The position numbers and the translations under genes are program-made. From Bacteroidota bacterium (GTDB taxonomy: Bacteria > Bacteroidota > Bacteroidia > Palsa-965), in assembly GCA_003153435.1 (NCBI GenBank), contig PLYR01000034.1, forward strand, positions 34,144-86,763: 52,620 bases of DNA. Direction: 5' to 3'. The notes under the pieces were generated by a model. It saw nothing but the letters and a program-made list of their open reading frames with translations. It did no database searches and had not been told where the DNA came from. This document shows, in pieces, positions 11,151 to 46,966 of this stretch (position 1 is the first letter of the stretch; each line of letters begins with the position of its first letter).

Positions 11151-12029
11151 TTAACCGTTGAGGGCTTCAGCCCCACCAACAATTTCAAGAATTTCGTTGG
11201 TGATGGAAGCTTGACGAGCTTTATTATAGGATAATTTAAGTTCTCTCAAAAGATCCTTCGCGTTATCCGTAGCTTTGTGCATTGCAGTCATACGTGCTCC
11301 ATGTTCAGCAGCATGAGAATCTAGCAGGGCTTTATAAATCTGGGTCTTGAGAGAACGTGGAATAAGATCCTTAACGATTTCTTCCTTAGATGGTTCAAAA
11401 ATGTAATCAACCTTAGAGCTTTTTCCTTCGGTTTTTGTAGCTACAACCGGTAAAAACTGCTCGACAGTTGGTATCTGAACCGCTGCATTTTTGAACTGAT
11501 TGTAAATGATGTCAATTTTATCAAACTCTCCCTTGGCATAAACTTCCATAATTTTTTCTGCTACCGGAGCAACGTTATCATAGGTGAGCTTATCGAAAAG
11601 CTCATTTAGCTTACGGGGCATATCGGATCCAATTATTTTGAATTCCGTCCTTCGGAAAAAATCATTCCCTTTTTTACCGATGCAAAGTACAGTTACATTA
11701 TATGCTTTATACTCGTTCTTGGCGAGAGCAACGGCACGTTTGATAATATTCGCATTAAATGCACCCGCAAGGCCACGATTTGAAGTTACAACAATGAGCA
11801 GAACATTCTTTACAGGCCGCTCCTTTGAAAAAGTCCCATCATTGCTGTCAAGACTGGCACTTAAATTTTCAAGGATTTCTCTTAGCTTTTTAGCATAAGG
11901 CCTCATCTGAGTAATAGCTTCCTGTGCTCTTCTCAACTTAGCTGCACTCACCATTTTCATAGCACTGGTGATCTGCTGGGTAGATGAAATGGAAGTGATC
12001 CGGTTACGTACTTCTTTTAAACTGGCCAT
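11151..12029 (-). CDS. atpG: ATP synthase F1 subunit gamma
   Basis: The gamma subunit is the rotating central stalk that couples c-ring rotation to catalysis in the alpha/beta hexamer. The 292-residue length is normal. The N-terminal helix (LKEVRNRITSISSTQQITSAMKMVSAAKL) and the C-terminal helix (ARMTAMHKATDNAKDLL) carry the family signatures; together they form the coiled-coil axle. It follows atpA by three bases and is the last atp gene of this cluster. Genes for beta and epsilon (atpD, atpC) are not here, as is usual in Bacteroidota. Confidence 0.97.
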   Translation of the reverse strand: MASLKEVRNRITSISSTQQITSAMKMVSAAKLRRAQEAITQMRPYAKKLREILENLSASLDSNDGTFSKERPVKNVLLIVVTSNRGLAGAFNANIIKRAVALAKNEYKAYNVTVLCIGKKGNDFFRRTEFKIIGSDMPRKLNELFDKLTYDNVAPVAEKIMEVYAKGEFDKIDIIYNQFKNAAVQIPTVEQFLPVVATKTEGKSSKVDYIFEPSKEEIVKDLIPRSLKTQIYKALLDSHAAEHGARMTAMHKATDNAKDLLRELKLSYNKARQASITNEILEIVGGAEALNG

Positions 12030-12032
12030 TGC

Positions 12033-13613
12033 TTAATGTTTGTATTTGGCAGCGAGGTCTTTTCCAACTGATTCAAGCGTGTTTGTGATATCGTCTGTAA
12101 GTTGTCCGGCCTTAAGTCCGTTAAGGACATCTTTATTTTTTGCTTCCAGATATTGAAGGAATTCTGTTTCAAATTCCCTTACTTTATTTACAGGTACATC
12201 TCTGAGAAGCCCCTTGGTTCCAAGATAAATGATAGCGATTTGTTGTTCTACACGCAGTGGTGAGAACTGACCTTGTTTAAGGATTTCCACATTACGGGAA
12301 CCTTTATCAAGAACTGCTTTGGTAGCAGAGTCAAGGTCAGAACCGAATTTAGAGAACGCTTCAAGTTCCCTGTACTGAGCTTGGTCAAGTTTCAGGGTTC
12401 CTGCTACTTTCTTCATGGATTTAATCTGTGCATTTCCACCTACACGGGATACAGAGATACCTACGTTGATCGCAGGGCGTACTCCTGAGTTAAACAGGTT
12501 AGACTCCAGAAAGATCTGACCATCGGTAATTGAAATTACGTTCGTCGGAATATAAGCAGAAACGTCGCCGGCTTGGGTTTCAATAATTGGAAGAGCAGTC
12601 AAGGATCCTCCACCTTTAACAAGCGGACGGATACTTTCAGGCAAGTCATTCATGGCCTGGGCAATACTGTCGGTCTTGTTAATTTTTGCCGCACGCTCGA
12701 GCAAACGGGAGTGCAGGTAGAATACGTCACCAGGATATGCTTCACGTCCAGGAGGACGACGGAGAAGAAGGGATACCTCACGGTAAGCTACCGCCTGTTT
12801 GGAAAGGTCATCATAAACAACAAGTGCTGGCTTACCGGTATCCCGGAAGAATTCCCCGATTGCTGCTCCAGCCATCGGTGCATAGAACTGCATCGGTGCA
12901 GGGTCAGAAGCGGTAGCACAAACAATGGCTGTGTAGGCCATAGCTCCGTTTTCTTCAAGGACACGTACAATATTCGCAACGGTAGAACCTTTTTGTCCGA
13001 TAGCTACGTAGATACAGAATACGGGTTCTCCTTTTTCGTAAAATTCTTTCTGGTTGATGATAGTATCAATACAGACAGCAGTCTTTCCGGTCTGACGGTC
13101 GCCGATAACCAACTCCCGCTGTCCGCGTCCGATTGGAATCATGGCATCGATCGCCTTGATCCCTGTTTGGAGAGGTTCGTTTACGGGCTGACGATAGATT
13201 ACACCAGGAGCCTTACGCTCGAGGGGCATTTCATACAAATCACCTTTAATGGGGCCTTTCCCATCGATCGGGTTGCCGAGCGTATCTACCACTCGACCTA
13301 GCATACCGTTACCAACTTTAATGGAGGCAATCTTTCGGGTCCGTTTAACGGAATCACCTTCTTTGATATTATTAGATGAGCCCAGTAATACCGCTCCTAC
13401 GTTATCTTCTTCCAGATTCAGAACGATTCCTTTAAGTCCATTCTCGAACTCAATAAGTTCACCCGACTGAACATTCGACAATCCATAGATACGGGCGATA
13501 CCGTCACCAACCTGGAGCACGGTTCCGATCTCTTCCAGTTCGGTTGCTGATTTTACGCCAGCCAGTTGCTGACGGAGTATTGCGGAGACTTCTGATGGTT
13601 TAATTTCTGCCAT
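12033..13613 (-). CDS. atpA: ATP synthase F1 subunit alpha
   Basis: The 526-residue alpha subunit forms the non-catalytic nucleotide sites of F1. An N-terminal beta-barrel domain (about 25-95) is followed by the nucleotide-binding domain with P-loop GDRQTGKTA near residue 172, the Walker B region [12 protein letters not shown], and the alpha signature [14 protein letters not shown] near 375. The C-terminal helical domain ends in KYKH. It lies six bases after atpH. The product must pair with a beta subunit encoded elsewhere. Confidence 0.98.
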
Positions 13614-13619
13614 TTTATT

Positions 13620-14168
13620 TTAGTTTAATGTATTCTCTTTAAATGTTCTTTCGAGTTGACGAAGTTTACCCAGAATGCTGGTATCGTTTTGTTTATCACC
13701 TACGCGGAGGATGAATCCCCCGATCAGATCTTTATTAACTTTTTCGACCAGTTCCACTTCTGAATTCAATTGTTTCCTGACGAGTTCATAAACTTTTTTG
13801 CGCATTTCTTCATCCAGGCCGGAAGCGGTTGTAATGACTGCAGTGAGGATATGCTTGTGATTTTTGTACTTCCGGACAAACTCCTCACAGATTAGTTCAA
13901 GGAATTCTTCCCTTTTTTGTGTAGCAATAAGCTGCAAGAAAGCGTTGGTAATCGGAGTGATGGTTTTGGAAAAGATCAATTCGAGTATTTCCTTTTTCTT
14001 TTCGGTTTTGATCACTGGGCTCCTGAGCATCGCTGAAAAATCACGATTTTCTTTGATTGTCTTCAGGATCAATAATACATCAATTTGAACTTTTTCAAGC
14101 TCCCCTTTTTCGAGGGATTGATCAAGCAACGATTTAGCATATCGAGAAGAAGCCCTTGTTCCTTTCAT
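13620..14168 (-). CDS. atpH: ATP synthase F1 subunit delta
   Basis: The delta (OSCP) subunit joins the peripheral b stalk to the top of F1. The 182-residue protein has the conserved N-terminal start (RYAKSLLDQSLEKGEL) that forms a six-helix bundle, and the C-terminal signature LIGGFILRVGDKQNDTSI. The start ATG at 14168 lies one base after the atpF stop, so translation is likely coupled. Confidence 0.95.
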   Translation of the reverse strand: MKGTRASSRYAKSLLDQSLEKGELEKVQIDVLLILKTIKENRDFSAMLRSPVIKTEKKKEILELIFSKTITPITNAFLQLIATQKREEFLELICEEFVRKYKNHKHILTAVITTASGLDEEMRKKVYELVRKQLNSEVELVEKVNKDLIGGFILRVGDKQNDTSILGKLRQLERTFKENTLN

Positions 14169-14169
14169 C

Positions 14170-14664
14170 TTAATTCAGGTTAACGTCGTTAAGGAGTGTT
14201 TTCACCAGAGTCTTTTGCTTATCACTGGAGGAAAGTTCTTCTTTCAAAATCTTTTCAGCAATTTCAAGAGAAAGTGCGGCTACCTGGTTTTTCATTTCAG
14301 CTATAGCAGCATTCTTTTCACTTTGAATATTTTCACGGGCGGACTTGAGAAGTTTATCTGCTTCCTTCTGTGCAGCACCTTTGGCTTCACCGACAATCTG
14401 ATCCTTGATCTCCCGTGCTTCTTTCAGCATAATATCGCGCTGATTTCGAGCTTCGTTAAGAAGTTTTTCATTGTTTGACTGAAGCTCTGCCATTTCTTTT
14501 TTGGCACGCTCGGCTGAACCCAGTGCATTTGTGATAAAATCTTCACGCTCTTTGAGCATATTTAAGATTGGTTTCCAGGCAAATTTTTTCAGGATCCAAA
14601 AAATGATGCCAAAGGATACAAGCATCCAGAAGATAAGGCCGAATTCGGGTTTTACTAATTGCAT
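14170..14664 (-). CDS. atpF: ATP synthase Fo subunit b
   Basis: Subunit b is the peripheral stator stalk. The 164-residue protein has one N-terminal membrane helix (about 8-27, FGLIFWMLVSFGIIFWILKKF) followed by a long charged helical coil rich in Ala, Lys and Glu that reaches delta at the C-terminus. Only one b-type gene is present, so the stalk is probably a homodimer. It is separated from atpE by 83 bases that contain a terminator-like hairpin. Confidence 0.96.
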   Translation of the reverse strand: MQLVKPEFGLIFWMLVSFGIIFWILKKFAWKPILNMLKEREDFITNALGSAERAKKEMAELQSNNEKLLNEARNQRDIMLKEAREIKDQIVGEAKGAAQKEADKLLKSARENIQSEKNAAIAEMKNQVAALSLEIAEKILKEELSSSDKQKTLVKTLLNDVNLN

Positions 14665-14698: not shown

Positions 14699-14739
14699 AA
14701 AAATCTCTGCATCATCACCAACCGTGATAATGCAGAGAT
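14699..14739 (-). terminator. Terminator-quality hairpin between atpE and atpF
   Basis: Read on the minus strand, ATCTCTGCAT, one base, ATCAC, a five-base loop, GTGAT, one base, ATGCAGAGAT form a stem of ten plus five perfect pairs with a single mismatch between them. It is followed directly by a run of five T. It starts nine bases after the atpE stop and ends 35 bases before atpF. This is the form of an intrinsic terminator, yet atpF, atpH, atpA and atpG must be expressed from beyond it. A partial terminator or an RNA processing/stability stem is the likely role. Confidence 0.8.
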
Positions 14740-14747
14740 AAATTTTC

Positions 14748-15071
<324 letters not shown>

Positions 15072-16199
15072 TTAATGATGTTCTGCGTGTGCATGTTCTT
15101 CGGTTGCAGAACCGAAATACATTGCAGCAAGCAGTGTGAATACATAAGCCTGCAAGAATGCAACCAGCAATTCCAACATGCCCATGAAAATAGTAAAGGC
15201 TACAGAGAAGATCGCAACTCCAAAACCTACTCCGGTACTCATTTCCGCAAAAATGAAGATAAGAGAGAAGAAGGATAAGGCTATGATGTGACCTGCAAGT
15301 ATGTTTGCAAACAGTCGGATCATCAATACGAAAGGTTTAAGAAACATCCCAAAGATCTCAATCGGGGTAAGGAGAACAAGAACTCCGATGGGAACACCCG
15401 GCATTGCCAGAATATGCCTCCAATAATTTGCATTGCTACTGAAAAGAGTTATGATGAAAACGATTGCCGCTAACGTCATGGCTACTGCAATATTCCCAGT
15501 TACATTGGCTCCTCCAGGAAGGAATGGGATCAGCCCGAGCATATTGCTCAGCCAGATGAAAAAGAAGATGGTAAGCAGGAAAGGCATATAGCGAGCATAT
15601 TTTTTTTCGCCAATAGCAGATTTTGCAATATCATCTCTTACAAAAAGGATCATGGGTTCTACAAAACTTTGTATTCCTTTTGGAGCAACTCCAGGCGAGC
15701 GCTTATATGCTTTAGCAGCGGAAAGAAAAATCCAAAGCATCAGTGCCATGGTAATGAAAATAGATAGTACATTCTTGGTTATGGATAAGTCCCACACCGT
15801 AGAGGTGACCGCTTCATCTTCCACGCCGTTTGCGCCCAGAGCAATCATTTTGTGGCTTCCGTCCTTCAGCTTTTCATATTTAAATCCGCGGGTTCCATCC
15901 TCGAGGTGACTGGAAAGAAATACAGATAGACCTCGGCTCGAATAGAGAATGACAGGAAGGGGAACTGCAATATGACCAGCAATATGCCATTCGTGTGAAT
16001 CTGAAATATGATCAATGATTAGTTCACCAGCATTAAATTTTTCGGATTTAGGCTCCACTTTTTCAACAGAAGGAGTTTGGGCCCGGAGGGTATCATTATC
16101 TGGATCGCCGGCAAAAAGAAGGCTTGTAGGGAGAATAAATGCTAATATTAGCAGGAAACGCCTGAAAAACATCTCGAAACTCTTGTAGTTATTGGCCAT
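15072..16199 (-). CDS. atpB: ATP synthase Fo subunit a, with exported N-terminal extension
   Basis: Subunit a forms the proton half-channels next to the c-ring. The C-terminal two thirds carry the membrane helices and the essential Arg in MIRLFANILAGH. The protein is 375 residues, about 100 longer than the enteric form. It begins with a signal-peptide-like segment (FFRRFLLILAFILPTSLLFA) and a soluble, charged region of about 100 residues before the first core helix, an extension common in Bacteroidota. The last residues are His-rich (HAHAEHH). An ATG at 16172 would drop nine residues and give a more compact signal sequence. A gap of 144 bases precedes the gene. Confidence 0.96.
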   Translation of the reverse strand: MANNYKSFEMFFRRFLLILAFILPTSLLFAGDPDNDTLRAQTPSVEKVEPKSEKFNAGELIIDHISDSHEWHIAGHIAVPLPVILYSSRGLSVFLSSHLEDGTRGFKYEKLKDGSHKMIALGANGVEDEAVTSTVWDLSITKNVLSIFITMALMLWIFLSAAKAYKRSPGVAPKGIQSFVEPMILFVRDDIAKSAIGEKKYARYMPFLLTIFFFIWLSNMLGLIPFLPGGANVTGNIAVAMTLAAIVFIITLFSSNANYWRHILAMPGVPIGVLVLLTPIEIFGMFLKPFVLMIRLFANILAGHIIALSFFSLIFIFAEMSTGVGFGVAIFSVAFTIFMGMLELLVAFLQAYVFTLLAAMYFGSATEEHAHAEHH

Positions 16200-16343: not shown

Positions 16344-16712
16344 CTATTTTTTTAGTTTCTGGTATAGGGAGGATACTTCGAAGACGGAGAAAAACAAATA
16401 CATAGCCAAAAAGTAAAGCGCAATGGCTCTGGCGTGGTCTCTGTTAATAAGGAAAACAATTATGAGAAAAGTGAGATAAGCAAGGAGTTTAAGAGCTGTG
16501 ATACCCATGAATTTACCAACAAATGCCTTTGGATCACCTTTTGATGATTTGAGCAGATAAGCATGTACGAGGAAGGTACTCAGCGAAAAGAAGATAAGTA
16601 TAAACCAGGAAATCTGATCATGAAGAAATTCCGGTGTAAACAGGTTCCAGGCGTAAAGTAAGACTCCACATAAAATTGTGAAAACAAGCAGCTTAGGACC
16701 AAAGGATTTCAT
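16344..16712 (-). CDS. Small four-helix membrane protein of the atp cluster
   Basis: The 122-residue protein has four predicted membrane helices (about 8-26, 32-52, 68-88 and 96-114) with short Lys-rich loops. I do not recognise a named family. It overlaps the atpZ stop by four bases (ATGA) and precedes atpB, the position occupied in many bacteria by AtpI, an assembly or ion-uptake helper of the c-ring. An AtpI-like role is therefore possible, but this is inferred from place and topology only. Confidence 0.75.
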   Translation of the reverse strand: MKSFGPKLLVFTILCGVLLYAWNLFTPEFLHDQISWFILIFFSLSTFLVHAYLLKSSKGDPKAFVGKFMGITALKLLAYLTFLIIVFLINRDHARAIALYFLAMYLFFSVFEVSSLYQKLKK

Positions 16713-16945
16713 TTCTTCTTCAGAAAGTCACGGATAAAGAACCAGAGGGCGACAGCCACCCCAACAAGGCAAAGAATAAGGGTAAAGATTGGAACTTTTT
16801 TAAACTCGAGGAAATTATCGAGCCAATGCCCGGCAAATATAAATACCCCCATGATGGCTACCATTTGCAACCCCATGGCCGAATATTTAAAAAAATCAGT
16901 AGGCGACTGCTTTTTCTTTGGCGGTGGCGTTGGACGGTCCTGCAT
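16709..16945 (-). CDS. AtpZ/AtpI-family small membrane protein
   Basis: The 78-residue protein has a Pro/Lys-rich N-terminus and two membrane helices (about 24-43 and 53-72) with the family hallmark GHWLDNFL between them. This family sits at the head of many atp operons and has been linked to c-ring assembly or Mg/Ca transport. Its first 50 bases overlap the end of the bactofilin gene in another frame, which is unusual and suggests tight translational coupling. Confidence 0.85.
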   Translation of the reverse strand: MQDRPTPPPKKKQSPTDFFKYSAMGLQMVAIMGVFIFAGHWLDNFLEFKKVPIFTLILCLVGVAVALWFFIRDFLKKK

Positions 16946-17330
16946 TCTTCATATCTTTTACTACCCCTCCCATGCTGCAAGAACCTGTAAAGTCGGCACC
17001 CGGTTCAATGGAAAGCTTGTTTGTGATCAGATCTCCGGAAAGCTTTGCAGTGGCCTTTAATGAAAGTAGCTCAGAAACAGTCACTTTGGCACGAATAGTT
17101 CCCATGAAATCAGCATTCTGACATACGACTTCCCCATCCACAACTCCGGTTGGGCCAATAACCAGCTTACCTTTTACATTGATAGATCCTTTGATGCTTC
17201 CATCAATTCGCATGTCGCCATGCGCTTTGATATCACCTTCTATAACAGTGCCAGAGCCGATCATGTTAATCGACGGGGAATCAGTTGAGTTCATCTTGGA
17301 CATTCCGTTTGGTTTATTTGAGTTAAACAT
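16896..17330 (-). CDS. Bactofilin (polymerising cytoskeletal protein)
   Basis: The 144-residue protein has a central right-handed beta-helix domain (about 25-115) made of short Gly/Val/Ile-rich turns (for example GDMRIDGSIKGSINVKGKLVIG), flanked by disordered polar tails. This is the bactofilin layout. Bactofilins self-assemble into filaments without nucleotide and scaffold envelope processes. The ATG at 17330 is chosen because the 23 residues before it do not belong to the fold. It lies between porW and the atp genes on the same strand and overlaps atpZ by 50 bases. The target process is not known. Confidence 0.88.
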   Translation of the reverse strand: MFNSNKPNGMSKMNSTDSPSINMIGSGTVIEGDIKAHGDMRIDGSIKGSINVKGKLVIGPTGVVDGEVVCQNADFMGTIRAKVTVSELLSLKATAKLSGDLITNKLSIEPGADFTGSCSMGGVVKDMKNAGPSNATAKEKAVAY

Positions 17331-17488
17331 AATCGGGATATTGTTTTGTAATATTGAATTCCAGTAAAAGTAAGTAAAAAAGCTTGAAAATGAGGACAAA
17401 AGGAAGAAGAAACGAACAATTAATTAACAAAATCAAAACAAATGGGTCGATTTCTTCCTGAAAATCACCTGCATTCAGAAGATTAAGA

Positions 17489-20221
17489 CTAGGGATTCCT
17501 CTTAAAGTAGTTGTCGTTGAAGAAGGTCTTGTACTCATCTGTACTTTTCTCCTGATAAAAAGTCTTGAAGTTTTCTGTGGAAAAAGTATAGACTTCAACA
17601 TTGGTAAGCGGGATATCCTTAAAAACATCTTTATCTCCTTTTACGAACTCGTAATACGTCATGGCAGCCTTTTTGTCATCAAAAGGCTTTATCTGGAAAA
17701 TCTGGAACTCTTCACTGAAGGGGACAGCGGTGATCGTGAGGCTCAGATTAGAAAAATACTGCTGGTTAAAATTGCTCAGGTTGGTTTTGAAAGCAGATGC
17801 ATCTATCCCCTTGCCTCGTAATACAATAACCGCACTGTGAGGAACCTGGTCATTGTAAAAGTATTTGTCCTTTTTAATTGAAGCAATGGAATCCTGCTTT
17901 GCACTGGCGGCGGCGCCCATCTTGACTCTTTTAATAGCCTCAAGCATCCCGGCTGCTTGTGTTTTTACATCGTCTTTGGGATACTTCACCGTCACTGCAG
18001 TAAGAGCGATCTCATAGGCCTTGAGATCACCGGTATGACCAATTGCAATGGCTTTGAGATATAGAAACTTAGGACTGAGTTTGCTTCCTCCATACATTGA
18101 ATCCGCCTGTTCACAACGTTGAATAACCAAAGGATAGTTACCAGCCAGATAGTTTGAATAGGTCTCCGTGTAAAAAGCTTTTACAATTTCCTGACTCCCT
18201 TTCATATTGCTGATGTGCTCTGGATTTTTGATCAACGCCGCGAGTTCAGAATCAGGATATTTGGATAATATGATCTCCCGGTTTCGGTCTGCTTTCTCCT
18301 GTTCTTCCATGCTCAGATAAATCCTGTATAGGAAGTAGAAGGAAGTAGGGATGTATTTATTCTCCGGGAAACGGCTGAGCATTTCTTCCAGTGTTGAGGC
18401 AGCCCGTTGGTTGTTCATGAGGGCTTCTTTATAGATCATGCTTGCATTATAGTAAGCATCAACGATCTTTCCATTTGATTTTTCTCTGGCTTCTTTCGTA
18501 AGCGGAAGGCCTTTGAGATAAAAATCACGAGAGGAGGTTAAAGTTGCTGGGTCTTTCTTTTTAGGTCCACCCTTACCCAAGGTAGGGGCTCCTTTTGTGG
18601 TGTCCTGGGTATCTGATGTCGCCGTGGGATCTCCGAACCCATTGGTTTCTTTACTGGCCCTCCTCCAGTTATCTTCCAATTTTCGATCTCCCCATTTCTT
18701 CCGGAAATCGGTAATGCCAAATGTAATGGCAGCAGAGTTATAGAAGTACCAGGAACCGGCCTCACTGGTAGTTGGAGCACCTGGAGTGGTAGCGCCGGGT
18801 GTCGTAACGGTGGGTCCTCCGGAGCTGCCATTCTTAACAGCCGCAAGCCTTTCCTCTTCCTTCTTTTTTTCTTCTTCTTTTATCTGGGCAATGAGTTTAT
18901 CTATAAAAGCATTCCGGGATGCCGTATCCATGGCAGCGATATTCTGAAGGCTATCCTCTACAGTAATAATTTTGAGGTTCTTGATCAGCTCGTTGAGGTT
19001 TTTGTCTCTGGCCAGGATCGTTTCATAATCGGGGTAATCTTTCTTGATCAGAGGCATTACACTGTCATAGTATGCCTGAGCCAGCTTATAGCTGGTTTTG
19101 TCATAATACAAATTCGCGAGTTTGAGATAGGAGCGTGTTTTTTGGACAGGATTTTTCGTACTTACCTTTACAGAGCTTCGCAGATAAGAAATCCCCTGAG
19201 CTTCGTTATTTTCTTTTAGTTCAATAATTGCTAGAGTGTAATAGATCTGGTCGCGATAATCTTCGTTCTTGAAGTCCTTTATCATTTTCAGAAGCTCGGC
19301 TTTGATCTTCTCGCCTTTGCCTTCCGAAAAATCATACAGCCTGGCATGATTAAGTCTGGCATTGAACTCCATATCATATTTTGGCTTCATTTTTACAACC
19401 ATTGCAAAGAGTTCGGAAGCTCTTTTGGTCTCTCCCATTTTTTCCCAAAGCTGAGCAAGAACAAACAGGTATCTGGCCCTGACATCCTTATTCTTACTCA
19501 GAGGGCTATTCTTAATAATGTCAAATTTTTTAAGCGGGCCTGCAGGCTCGAGGTAAGCAATGGCTTTGGAAAGGTTTCCGATTGCTGCCTGCCATTGCTC
19601 CCGTCTAATGTTGTAATCTGCAGCGAGGGCATAGAGTTCAGGGTATTTGCTCTTTGGAAATTTACGATCATCCTTCAGCATGGTGATCAGTTCTTCCGAT
19701 TTTGAAAAGATGCTTGTTTCGTTATAGGTGCGGATGAGCCAAAGGAATCCATCATAACGGATCTCCCACTTTACATATTTCTTTGTGACATATTCAAAAG
19801 CATCAACAGCACCAAAATATTCTAATTTATAAAACCTGGCCTGGCCGATGGTCATGTAACAATCGTCAATCCAATTGTTGGCCATGGCAATCTCTACATT
19901 TTTTTTATCAGTAATCATGTGCCTTTCAATGGCACTGGTACATTTCTTTATTGCCTTGTCCATATCGCCGGAAGCCATTTTCTGACTTTCCTTATTCGCA
20001 TAGACAAACAGGGGTAAAATCTGAGAGTAATCGTCGATATTTGCTTTATTGATCTTTATAAGCCCCTCTTTGATCGCTTCCCGCGCATAGTAGTATCCGT
20101 TGTAGCGGGTGTTGAGACGATGGTAACCCCTTGTTCTCCAATTGTTTTTGTTGGTGGCGCACCCCATTAATCCCATAACCAGGATGGTAAAACAAAGAAG
20201 ATGGAGTCTTGTCTTTTTCAA
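17489..20221 (-). CDS. porW: PorW/SprE-like TPR lipoprotein of the type IX secretion system
   Basis: The 910-residue protein begins with a lipoprotein signal (MKKTRLHLLC..GLMGC, lipid-bearing Cys21). TPR-type helical repeats fill about 60-440, a charged Glu/Lys stretch and a Gly/Pro/Thr-rich linker lie at about 445-490, and more TPRs precede a mixed C-terminal domain containing FDDKKAAMTYYEFVKGD. Length, layout and linkage to a bactofilin and atp genes match PorW (Porphyromonas) / SprE (Flavobacterium), a periplasmic lipoprotein needed for type IX secretion and gliding. The start codon is TTG at 20221; no in-frame ATG lies between it and the upstream stop near 20261-20263. A TAnnTTTG promoter is 55 bases upstream. 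Confidence 0.88.
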   Translation of the reverse strand: MKKTRLHLLCFTILVMGLMGCATNKNNWRTRGYHRLNTRYNGYYYAREAIKEGLIKINKANIDDYSQILPLFVYANKESQKMASGDMDKAIKKCTSAIERHMITDKKNVEIAMANNWIDDCYMTIGQARFYKLEYFGAVDAFEYVTKKYVKWEIRYDGFLWLIRTYNETSIFSKSEELITMLKDDRKFPKSKYPELYALAADYNIRREQWQAAIGNLSKAIAYLEPAGPLKKFDIIKNSPLSKNKDVRARYLFVLAQLWEKMGETKRASELFAMVVKMKPKYDMEFNARLNHARLYDFSEGKGEKIKAELLKMIKDFKNEDYRDQIYYTLAIIELKENNEAQGISYLRSSVKVSTKNPVQKTRSYLKLANLYYDKTSYKLAQAYYDSVMPLIKKDYPDYETILARDKNLNELIKNLKIITVEDSLQNIAAMDTASRNAFIDKLIAQIKEEEKKKEEERLAAVKNGSSGGPTVTTPGATTPGAPTTSEAGSWYFYNSAAITFGITDFRKKWGDRKLEDNWRRASKETNGFGDPTATSDTQDTTKGAPTLGKGGPKKKDPATLTSSRDFYLKGLPLTKEAREKSNGKIVDAYYNASMIYKEALMNNQRAASTLEEMLSRFPENKYIPTSFYFLYRIYLSMEEQEKADRNREIILSKYPDSELAALIKNPEHISNMKGSQEIVKAFYTETYSNYLAGNYPLVIQRCEQADSMYGGSKLSPKFLYLKAIAIGHTGDLKAYEIALTAVTVKYPKDDVKTQAAGMLEAIKRVKMGAAASAKQDSIASIKKDKYFYNDQVPHSAVIVLRGKGIDASAFKTNLSNFNQQYFSNLSLTITAVPFSEEFQIFQIKPFDDKKAAMTYYEFVKGDKDVFKDIPLTNVEVYTFSTENFKTFYQEKSTDEYKTFFNDNYFKRNP

Positions 20222-45037: not shown

Positions 45038-46966
45038 TCAGGCGGTAATTTTTTTGCTTTCTCGCAACAATTCCAGGACAGCAGTAGCTATGGCAGGGGC
45101 ATCAAATCCACATTCCTGATAAAGTTCTTTCTGCTCCCCATGCTCTATAACGGCATCTGGAATCCCAAGTCTTCTCACCTGAGCAGAATAATCGTGATCA
45201 GCCATGAATTCAAGTACTGCACTGCCCATGCCACCCATGATACATCCATCTTCAATGGTAATAACCTTGCGGTATCTGGAGAAGACTTCATGAAGTAACG
45301 TTTCATCGAGAGGTTTGACAAAACGCATATCATACAGAGCTGCACTGATGCCTTGTTTTTCGAGGTCTTTGCAGGCCTGAAGGGCAATATTACCGATATG
45401 GCCGATGCTTAGAATAGCCACATCATTCCCTTCTCTTATTTTTCTTCCTTTTCCGATCGATATTTCTGTAAATGGACGCTTCCAGTCGGGCATTACACCA
45501 TTCCCTCTTGGATATCGTATTGAAAATGGGAAGTTATTTTTCTCAAGCTGCGCCGTATACATCAGATTTCGGAGTTCCTCTTCATTCATGGGAGCGGAGA
45601 CGACCATATTGGGAATACACCTGAAAAAGGCCAGGTCGTAGGCTCCATGATGGGTGGGTCCATCCGCTCCAGCTAAGCCTCCACGGTCCAGGCAGAATAC
45701 AACATGCAGGTTCTGCAAGGCCACATCGTGAATAACCTGGTCATATGCCCTTTGCATGAAGGATGAATAAATATTGCAAAAAGGAATTAAACCCTGGGTA
45801 GCCAATCCGGCAGAGAATGTAACGGCATGTTGTTCGGCTATGCCCACGTCGAAAGCACGGTCAGGCATAGCCTTCATCATGATATTCAGGGAACATCCGG
45901 AAGGCATGGCAGGAGTAATTCCCATTATTTTAGGATTGAGTTCTGCGAGCTCAACAATCGTATTTCCGAAAACATCCTGATACTTTGGAGGCTGAGGTTC
46001 TTTCGGAACCACTTTGATGATTTCCCCTGTTTCCTTGTTAAATAACCCGGGGCTGTGCCAAAGGGTCTGATTGCCTTCTTCAGAGTATTTATATCCTTTA
46101 CCTTTTTGAGTGAGGGTATGAAGAATCTTTGGCCCGGGAATATTTTTCATGTCTTCCAGGATCTTCTTCATTCTGATCACATCATGTCCATCTACCGGTC
46201 CAAAATAACGGAATTTAAAAGATTCAAACAGGTTGCTTTGTTTAAGCAGTGTGGTTTTTATCCCATTTTCAATTTTGGAAACAATCTCCTGTGCATTCGG
46301 GCCGAACTTGGAAATTTTGCCAAGCAGGTTCCATATATCGTCCTTGAAGCGGTTATAGGTCTGAGAAGTAGTAATATCAGTAAGGTATTCTTTGAGGGCA
46401 CCCACATTGGGGTCTATACTCATGCAGTTATCATTCAGAACAACAAGCAGATTGGAATTGGCGATCCCGGCATGGTTGAGTGCTTCAAAAGCCATACCTG
46501 CAGTCATCGCCCCGTCACCGATGACGGCAATTACATTCCGGTCTTTCTCCCCCTTGTATTTGGAACCTACTGACATGCCTAATGCGGTAGAGATAGAGGT
46601 AGAGGAATGTCCTACCCCCATAGCATCATACTCACTTTCTTTCCTTTTAGGGAAACCGCTGATGCCTTTATAAAGCCTGTTCGTTTGAAAACGGGAGCGG
46701 CGTCCGGTCAGAATCTTGTGCCCGTAAGCCTGATGGCCTACGTCCCAGACAAGCTGATCATAAGGGGTATTGAAAACATAGTGAAGTGCTACCGTTAATT
46801 CCACTACACCAAGGCTGGCACCGAAGTGTCCTCCTTTTTTGGAAACGACATCCACGATATATTGCCTGAGTTCTTTACAAACCTGAGGAAGTTCATCTTC
46901 CTTCAGTTTGCGAAGGTCTGATGGGAATTCAATCTTAGAAAGCAGCTCTCCTGCCTGAAAATCCAT
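45038..46966 (-). CDS. dxs: 1-deoxy-D-xylulose-5-phosphate synthase
   Basis: Dxs condenses pyruvate and glyceraldehyde 3-phosphate, the first step of the MEP isoprenoid route, and supplies the DXP used for pyridoxal phosphate and thiamine. The protein of about 642 residues has the N-terminal His motif WDVGHQAYGHKILTGR. The thiamine-diphosphate motif runs from GDGAMTAGMAFEALNHAG to NDNCMSI, and the transketolase-like pyrimidine domain contains DVGIAEQHAVTFSAG. I chose the ATG at 46966 rather than the start at 46987 because the promoter element at 46985-46992 overlaps the latter. Confidence 0.96.
   Translation of the reverse strand: MDFQAGELLSKIEFPSDLRKLKEDELPQVCKELRQYIVDVVSKKGGHFGASLGVVELTVALHYVFNTPYDQLVWDVGHQAYGHKILTGRRSRFQTNRLYKGISGFPKRKESEYDAMGVGHSSTSISTALGMSVGSKYKGEKDRNVIAVIGDGAMTAGMAFEALNHAGIANSNLLVVLNDNCMSIDPNVGALKEYLTDITTSQTYNRFKDDIWNLLGKISKFGPNAQEIVSKIENGIKTTLLKQSNLFESFKFRYFGPVDGHDVIRMKKILEDMKNIPGPKILHTLTQKGKGYKYSEEGNQTLWHSPGLFNKETGEIIKVVPKEPQPPKYQDVFGNTIVELAELNPKIMGITPAMPSGCSLNIMMKAMPDRAFDVGIAEQHAVTFSAGLATQGLIPFCNIYSSFMQRAYDQVIHDVALQNLHVVFCLDRGGLAGADGPTHHGAYDLAFFRCIPNMVVSAPMNEEELRNLMYTAQLEKNNFPFSIRYPRGNGVMPDWKRPFTEISIGKGRKIREGNDVAILSIGHIGNIALQACKDLEKQGISAALYDMRFVKPLDETLLHEVFSRYRKVITIEDGCIMGGMGSAVLEFMADHDYSAQVRRLGIPDAVIEHGEQKELYQECGFDAPAIATAVLELLRESKKITA

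What the first reader, a model, noticed from the sequence alone, without database searches (positions are those of the whole stretch)
14699..14739. Terminator-like hairpin inside the atp operon, right after the c-subunit gene
A 10+5 bp stem followed by five T lies between atpE and atpF on the transcribed strand. It looks like a full intrinsic terminator, but four atp genes lie beyond it. ATP synthase needs about ten c subunits per one a, two b and one delta. A partial terminator or 3' stabilising stem after atpE would give atpB-atpE transcripts in excess, a transcript-level counterpart of the translational enhancer known for atpE in Escherichia coli.
Basis: partly seen in the sequence, partly recalled or inferred. 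Interest (0 to 1): 0.62.

Follow-up and report, generated by a model that had tools for sequence, protein, structure and literature searches.

The report
Conserved-loop hairpin after ATP-synthase c gene
Right after the gene for the ATP-synthase ring subunit c, most sampled bacteria of the class Bacteroidia carry an RNA hairpin whose stem letters have changed freely but whose loop (ARC-GGUUG-GYU) has been kept, which points to an undescribed RNA signal that probably raises the amount of c-subunit message.

Summary
The hairpin (minus strand, 14739-14703) has 16 contiguous pairs (10, one G-U, 5), pentaloop GGTTG and a T run to 14699. It folds far better than shuffles (z -7 to -7.5) and occurs once in the genome.

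The new fact is conservation. A hairpin with a GNNTG loop (mostly GGTTG or GATTG) lies between atpE and atpF in 77 of 123 Bacteroidia genomes (0.4 expected by shuffling, 0 antisense). The stem has been rewritten by paired changes while the loop was kept. Whole-genome searches with the model land almost only at atpE. Among 155 strong terminator-like hairpins in four genomes, only the atpE one has this loop. The loop sits 27 nt (SD 5.5) after the atpE stop, but at variable distance from atpF (SD 20), so it belongs to the 3' end of atpE. A run of four or more T follows in 68% and is absent in 14%, so termination is probably not its universal role.

Most likely mechanism: an atpE 3' element, part leaky terminator and part mRNA-end protector, giving more c-subunit message, with a loop read by an unknown factor. 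The structure is shown; the function is inferred, with no expression data. Rfam and the papers searched held no match.

The parts
14748..15014 (-). atpE, F0F1 ATP synthase c subunit (88 aa)
   Evidence: PF00137 E 1.3e-15; ORF and translation
14703..14739 (-). Hairpin: 16 contiguous base pairs (arms 14739-14724 and 14718-14703) with a 5-nt loop
   Evidence: fold -25.6 kcal/mol, z -6.9; covariation in relatives
14717..14725 (-). Conserved cap A-C-[GGTTG]-G-T; loop 14723-14719. Class consensus A-R-C-G-G-T-T-G-G-Y-T
   Evidence: loop GGTTG in 64 of 77 positive Bacteroidia genomes; base counts per position in 117 loci
14699..14703 (-). T run at the 3' foot (TTTTT; the first T is paired)
   Evidence: sequence; T run of 4 or more in 68% of relatives' hairpins, 2 or fewer in 14%
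14170..14664 (-). atpF, b subunit, first gene beyond the hairpin
   Evidence: PF00430 E 1.4e-28
15072..16199 (-). atpB, a subunit, upstream of atpE
   Evidence: PF00119 E 2.7e-55
11151..14168 (-). atpH, atpA, atpG, the rest of the cluster beyond the hairpin
   Evidence: PF00213, PF00006/PF00306/PF02874, PF00231

Best explanation
It is a cis-acting RNA element in the 3' untranslated end of atpE, conserved in the class Bacteroidia. In the atp mRNA it folds into a hairpin (typically 12-20 bp) capped by the loop ARC-GNNUG-GYU, about 27 nt after the atpE stop codon (shown by comparative sequence). It most likely defines a 3' end for atpB-atpE mRNAs. It would do this partly by leaky intrinsic termination where a U run follows, and partly by shielding the 3' end of terminated or cleaved mRNA from 3'-5' exonucleases, so that c-subunit mRNA exceeds that of atpF-H-A-G (inferred). 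The kept loop is most likely a recognition site for a trans-acting factor, probably an RNA-binding protein, that modulates this (inferred; partner unknown).
For: 1) The stem covaries: score 1.06 against 0.16-0.24 for slid controls and 0.23 for shuffles; all 15 pairs show changes on both sides (A1 likewise). 2) The loop is kept while the stem turns over: 77/123 Bacteroidia genomes (shuffles 0.4, antisense 0), 40/64 named loci (0.2), 0/20 in other classes of the phylum, 0/14 in other phyla. 3) It is specific to atpE: in 89 whole genomes 33 of 40 model hits at E<=1e-3 lie just 3' of atpE, among them the 29 best. In the own genome ACGGTTGGT occurs 24 times (28 for the reversed control) and only the atpE copy has a 16-bp stem. 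One in 155 strong terminator-like hairpins of four genomes has a GNNTG loop, and that one is the atpE hairpin. 4) It is anchored to the atpE stop: stop-to-loop SD 5.5 nt, loop-to-atpF SD 19.9 nt. 5) It acts as atp-sense RNA: G-U pairs outnumber A-C 64 to 25, and no antisense hits in Bacteroidia. 6) T run >=4 at the foot in 68%, against 17% in downstream windows and 26% in shuffles. 7) The gap upstream of atpE has no such hairpin: score >=20 in 1%, against 77% downstream of atpE. 8) Stem-loops after selected genes set operon stoichiometry in clostridia by partial termination and transcript stabilisation (PMC9045158, PMC8219983).
Against: No expression, 3'-end or protein data for any carrier. 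The element is absent where the gap is short (several genomes with 11-46 nt) and in the one Prevotellaceae and one Bacteroidaceae locus seen, so c-subunit excess can be had without it. No binding partner is known.
Confidence: 0.55

Rival explanations
1. Ordinary leaky intrinsic terminator inside the operon; the loop is only a fast-folding, stable pentaloop (as UUCG is in Escherichia coli terminators) with no trans-acting partner.
For: T run enriched at the foot; strong stem; clostridial internal terminators also have long stems and weak U tracts (PMC9045158).
Against: The loop is not used by other strong terminator-like hairpins of these genomes: none of 154 others. Hairpin and loop persist without any T run in 16 of 117 loci, three of them in the window's own family.
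Confidence: 0.25
2. Pure 3' stabiliser or processing stem (selective RNA processing and stabilisation): mRNA is cut downstream and exonucleases stop at the hairpin; no termination.
For: Stem strength is kept even where the T run is absent; clostridial precedent (PMC8219983).
Against: T runs are enriched well above control; a generic exonuclease barrier does not explain a kept loop sequence.
Confidence: 0.2
3. Translation-coupled signal: the hairpin sits just outside a ribosome standing at the atpE stop codon and slows termination, or recruits a factor, to help membrane insertion of the small c subunit.
For: Stop-to-stem distance median 13 nt and stop-to-loop 27 nt, SD 5.5.
Against: The stem base ranges from 0 to 38 nt after the stop; terminators also tend to sit beyond the ribosome footprint (general knowledge). 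The loop does not resemble the SRP RNA apical loop (GGAA-type) of the same genomes.
Confidence: 0.08
4. Chance inverted repeat or a mobile palindromic repeat (REP-like).
For: None beyond its palindromic form.
Against: Single copy in the genome; z -7.5; conserved at one site in many families with covarying stem.
Confidence: 0.01

Closest known systems
Internal terminators in ABC-importer operons of cellulolytic clostridia (PMC9045158)
   Same: Stem-loop after the gene needed in excess, within an operon; long stem with a short or weak U tract; proposed effect is more transcript upstream than downstream.
   Different: There the function was measured (termination efficiency 20.7-96.1%) and the paper says stem-loop sequences of terminators do not seem conserved. 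Here the loop is conserved across a class, the operon is atp, and function is unmeasured.
Selective RNA processing and stabilisation (SRPS) operons, SLOFE method (PMC8219983)
   Same: 3' stem-loops of chosen genes are held to set operon stoichiometry; ATP synthases are named among the operons whose stoichiometry is predicted in clostridia.
   Different: Defined by free energy and processing, with no shared loop motif described in the passages read; Firmicutes. Cleavage here is unknown.
L17 downstream element, RF01708 (PMC2864571)
   Same: Structured RNA in the 3' UTR of one particular gene, found by comparative genomics; protein feedback suggested but unproven.
   Different: Other gene (ribosomal protein L17), other taxa (Lactobacillales, Listeria), GNRA loops, often no gene immediately downstream. 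No Rfam family reached its cut-off on the window or on nine related loci.
Escherichia coli atpE translational enhancer (from general knowledge, not tested)
   Same: Also serves excess c-subunit synthesis from the atp operon.
   Different: It lies upstream of atpE and acts on translation initiation; this element lies downstream of atpE.

Membership tests
Intrinsic (Rho-independent) terminator | Stable G+C-containing stem-loop | tested here: met
   16 bp, -25.6 kcal/mol, z -6.9
Intrinsic (Rho-independent) terminator | U-rich tract immediately 3' of the stem, kept in relatives | tested here: inconclusive
   TTTTT in the window; run >=4 in 68% and <=2 in 14% of 117 relatives; the tool's terminator scan did not list the site
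Intrinsic (Rho-independent) terminator | RNA 3' ends form there | not testable with these tools
   no Term-seq or RNA-seq data held
SRPS 3' stabilising stem-loop | Stable stem-loop in the 3' UTR of a gene inside an operon | tested here: met
SRPS 3' stabilising stem-loop | Processed ends and longer half-life of the upstream transcript | not testable with these tools
   needs RNA decay data
Conserved structured cis-RNA motif (Rfam-type family) | Covariation supporting the helix, above shuffled and slid controls | tested here: met
Conserved structured cis-RNA motif (Rfam-type family) | Conserved unpaired nucleotides and constant gene context | tested here: met
Any existing Rfam 15 family | Match at or above the family's gathering score | tested here: not met
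   no match on the window or on nine related loci; sub-threshold matches look like chance
REP / dispersed palindromic repeat | Many copies in the genome | tested here: not met
   one copy

The most novel reading that the evidence does not exclude
The GNNUG loop is the binding site of a dedicated Bacteroidia RNA-binding factor, making this a regulated 3'-UTR element that tunes ATP-synthase c-subunit supply, possibly with feedback. It would be a sequence-specific 3'-UTR regulator conserved across a bacterial class in a core energy operon.
Probability: 0.3. Interest if true: 0.82.

Novelty: new variant of a known kind. Interest (0 to 1): 0.62.

Why it matters
How bacteria make about ten c subunits per a subunit from one operon is known mainly for Escherichia coli, at the translation level (general knowledge). 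Here is a concrete, class-wide, sequence-defined candidate for a transcript-level solution in Bacteroidia. The kept loop gives a sharp handle (swap the loop, keep the stem) for testing whether a trans-acting factor reads it. Conserved 3'-UTR RNA elements are rare in bacteria: the RF01708 paper calls such regulation 'highly unusual' (PMC2864571).

Tried and rejected
Chance or repeat element: rejected.

General terminator loop of these genomes: rejected; 1 of 155 strong terminator-like hairpins has GNNTG, and it is the atpE hairpin itself. Most off-target model hits that I opened lack the GNNTG pentaloop or lie in coding sequence; one (L358, loop GATTG) remains unexplained.

Antisense-strand function: disfavoured (no antisense hits in Bacteroidia; G-U 64 against A-C 25).

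Leader of atpF: disfavoured, since the distance to atpF follows gap length (r 0.97) while the distance to the atpE stop varies much less.

SRP-RNA mimicry: rejected for the SRP apical loop, which is the usual GGAA type. Mimicry of an rRNA loop was not tested.

Known Rfam family: none.

Full report
What is there. On the minus strand the window carries atpB (a), atpE (c), atpF (b), atpH (delta), atpA (alpha) and atpG (gamma), confirmed by Pfam. Between the atpE stop (14750-14748) and the atpF start (14664) lie 83 nt. These hold a hairpin of 16 contiguous pairs (10, one U-G, 5) with loop GGTTG and a T run at 14703-14699. The fold is far more stable than shuffles (z -7.5 for the gap), and the sequence occurs once in the genome.

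Conservation in close relatives. atpE was found in 37 of 39 genomes searched (30 loci fetched). In most of these loci the atpE-atpF gap folds into a long hairpin. Its stem letters are unrelated between genomes, but in about 20 of the 30 its loop is GGTTG or close to it, closed as a rule by C-G with A-U or G-C beneath. A gap-free 17-sequence alignment gives 92.6% paired cells and covariation 1.07, against 0.13-0.24 for slid controls. Forty-nine sequences give 1.06 against 0.16-0.24, with all 15 pairs changing on both sides. The sequences in these alignments were chosen partly because they form hairpins with a GNNTG loop, so the fixed G, T and G in the loop follow from the selection. The census below does not have this problem.

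Census. In 123 Bacteroidia genomes from a broad spread of families, 77 have a hairpin in this gap with a GNNTG loop closed by a G-C pair. Dinucleotide-preserving shuffles give 0.4, and the antisense strand gives 0. The loops are 64 GGTTG, 9 GATTG and 4 others. Named loci: 40 of 64 (0.2 expected). Other classes of the phylum: 0 of 20. Other phyla, mostly Planctomycetota: 0 of 14. The named and unnamed sets overlap (some contigs are the same) and should not be added; the genomes are also not independent draws. Positions left free by the search are also conserved in the 117 positive loci: position -2 is always a purine, loop position 3 is T in 111 and loop position 2 is G or A in 113. At least eight of the 46 negative genomes have gaps too short to hold it. 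Others carry variants: six genomes of one family (f30) have a capped hairpin of the form GC-[ACAGG or similar]-GC over a 3x3 internal loop, and four of another (f15) have GGC-[NNNNG]-GCC. Named carriers include Taishania, Solitalea and Rufibacter (loops GGTTG, GATTG and GATTG).

Specificity. The motif ACGGTTGGT occurs 24 times in the own genome, no more than its reversed control (28); only the atpE copy has a 16-bp stem. Searching 89 whole genomes with the covariance model gave 40 hits at E<=1e-3. Thirty-three lie just 3' of atpE, among them the 29 best (my own count from coordinates). The tool scored only part of the candidates in each genome, so its sensitivity is limited and off-target sites may have been missed. 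In 1.24 Mb of four genomes, 155 strong terminator-like hairpins include one GNNTG loop, the atpE hairpin itself. So this is not a common terminator loop.

Which gene and which strand. The loop lies 27 nt after the atpE stop (IQR 24-30, SD 5.5), but 53 nt before atpF with SD 20; gap length correlates 0.97 with the distance to atpF. The stretch upstream of atpE has no comparable hairpin (score >=20 in 1% against 77% downstream). G-U pairs outnumber A-C mismatches 64 to 25. The element is therefore part of the atpE 3' end and acts as sense RNA.

Terminator or not. A T run of at least four follows the stem in 68%, against 17% in control windows and 26% in shuffles, so termination is plausible in many species, this one included. 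But in 14% a strong hairpin with the loop has no T run, including three members of the window's own family, L015, L016 and L020. What selection keeps is the stem and loop.

Mechanism. The best single account is a 3'-end element of atpE that yields extra atpB-atpE message by leaky termination, by shielding the 3' end, or by both, with the loop read by an unknown factor. Precedents exist in clostridia, where stem-loops after chosen genes set operon stoichiometry by partial termination and stabilisation, with ATP synthases among the operons treated (PMC9045158, PMC8219983). In contrast, the ATP synthase operon of the archaeon Methanococcus maripaludis has no internal terminator (PMC10450193). The steps from structure to function are inference: no expression data were available.

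Novelty. No Rfam 15 family reached its cut-off on the window or on nine related loci, and no paper found in the held library describes the element. The main earlier catalogue not readable here (doi 10.1093/nar/gkx699) could contain it. I file it as a new variant of a known kind: an intercistronic, 3'-UTR stem-loop distinguished by a class-wide conserved loop.

Noticed in passing
L163, L164, L166, L168, L169, L171 (atpE-atpF gaps of one family, f30): A second conserved cap in the same place: outer stem, 3x3 internal loop, then GC-[ACAGG, AAAGG or GAAGG]-GC. It looks like a family-specific version of the same element.
   Followed up: partly
L176, L178, L184, L185 (family f15): A third version, GGC-[NNNNG]-GCC. 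All versions share a pentaloop ending in G and, as a rule, closed by C-G.
   Followed up: partly
L205-L216, L222 (other classes of Bacteroidota) and L084, L125 (Planctomycetota): Many genomes outside Bacteroidia also have a strong hairpin after atpE but without the GNNTG loop, so a hairpin after atpE may be older than the loop.
   Followed up: partly
L358 (G216:C4, about 45728-45768): A long hairpin with loop AAC-GATTG-GTT away from atpE, in a genome whose own atpE-atpF gap is only 12 nt; it may be an independent use or a relocated copy.
   Followed up: no
window 16344-20221, minus strand: Upstream of atpB lie a 122-aa ORF without a Pfam match, an ATPase_gene1 protein (PF09527), a bactofilin (PF04519) and a 910-aa TPR-repeat protein.
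   Followed up: no
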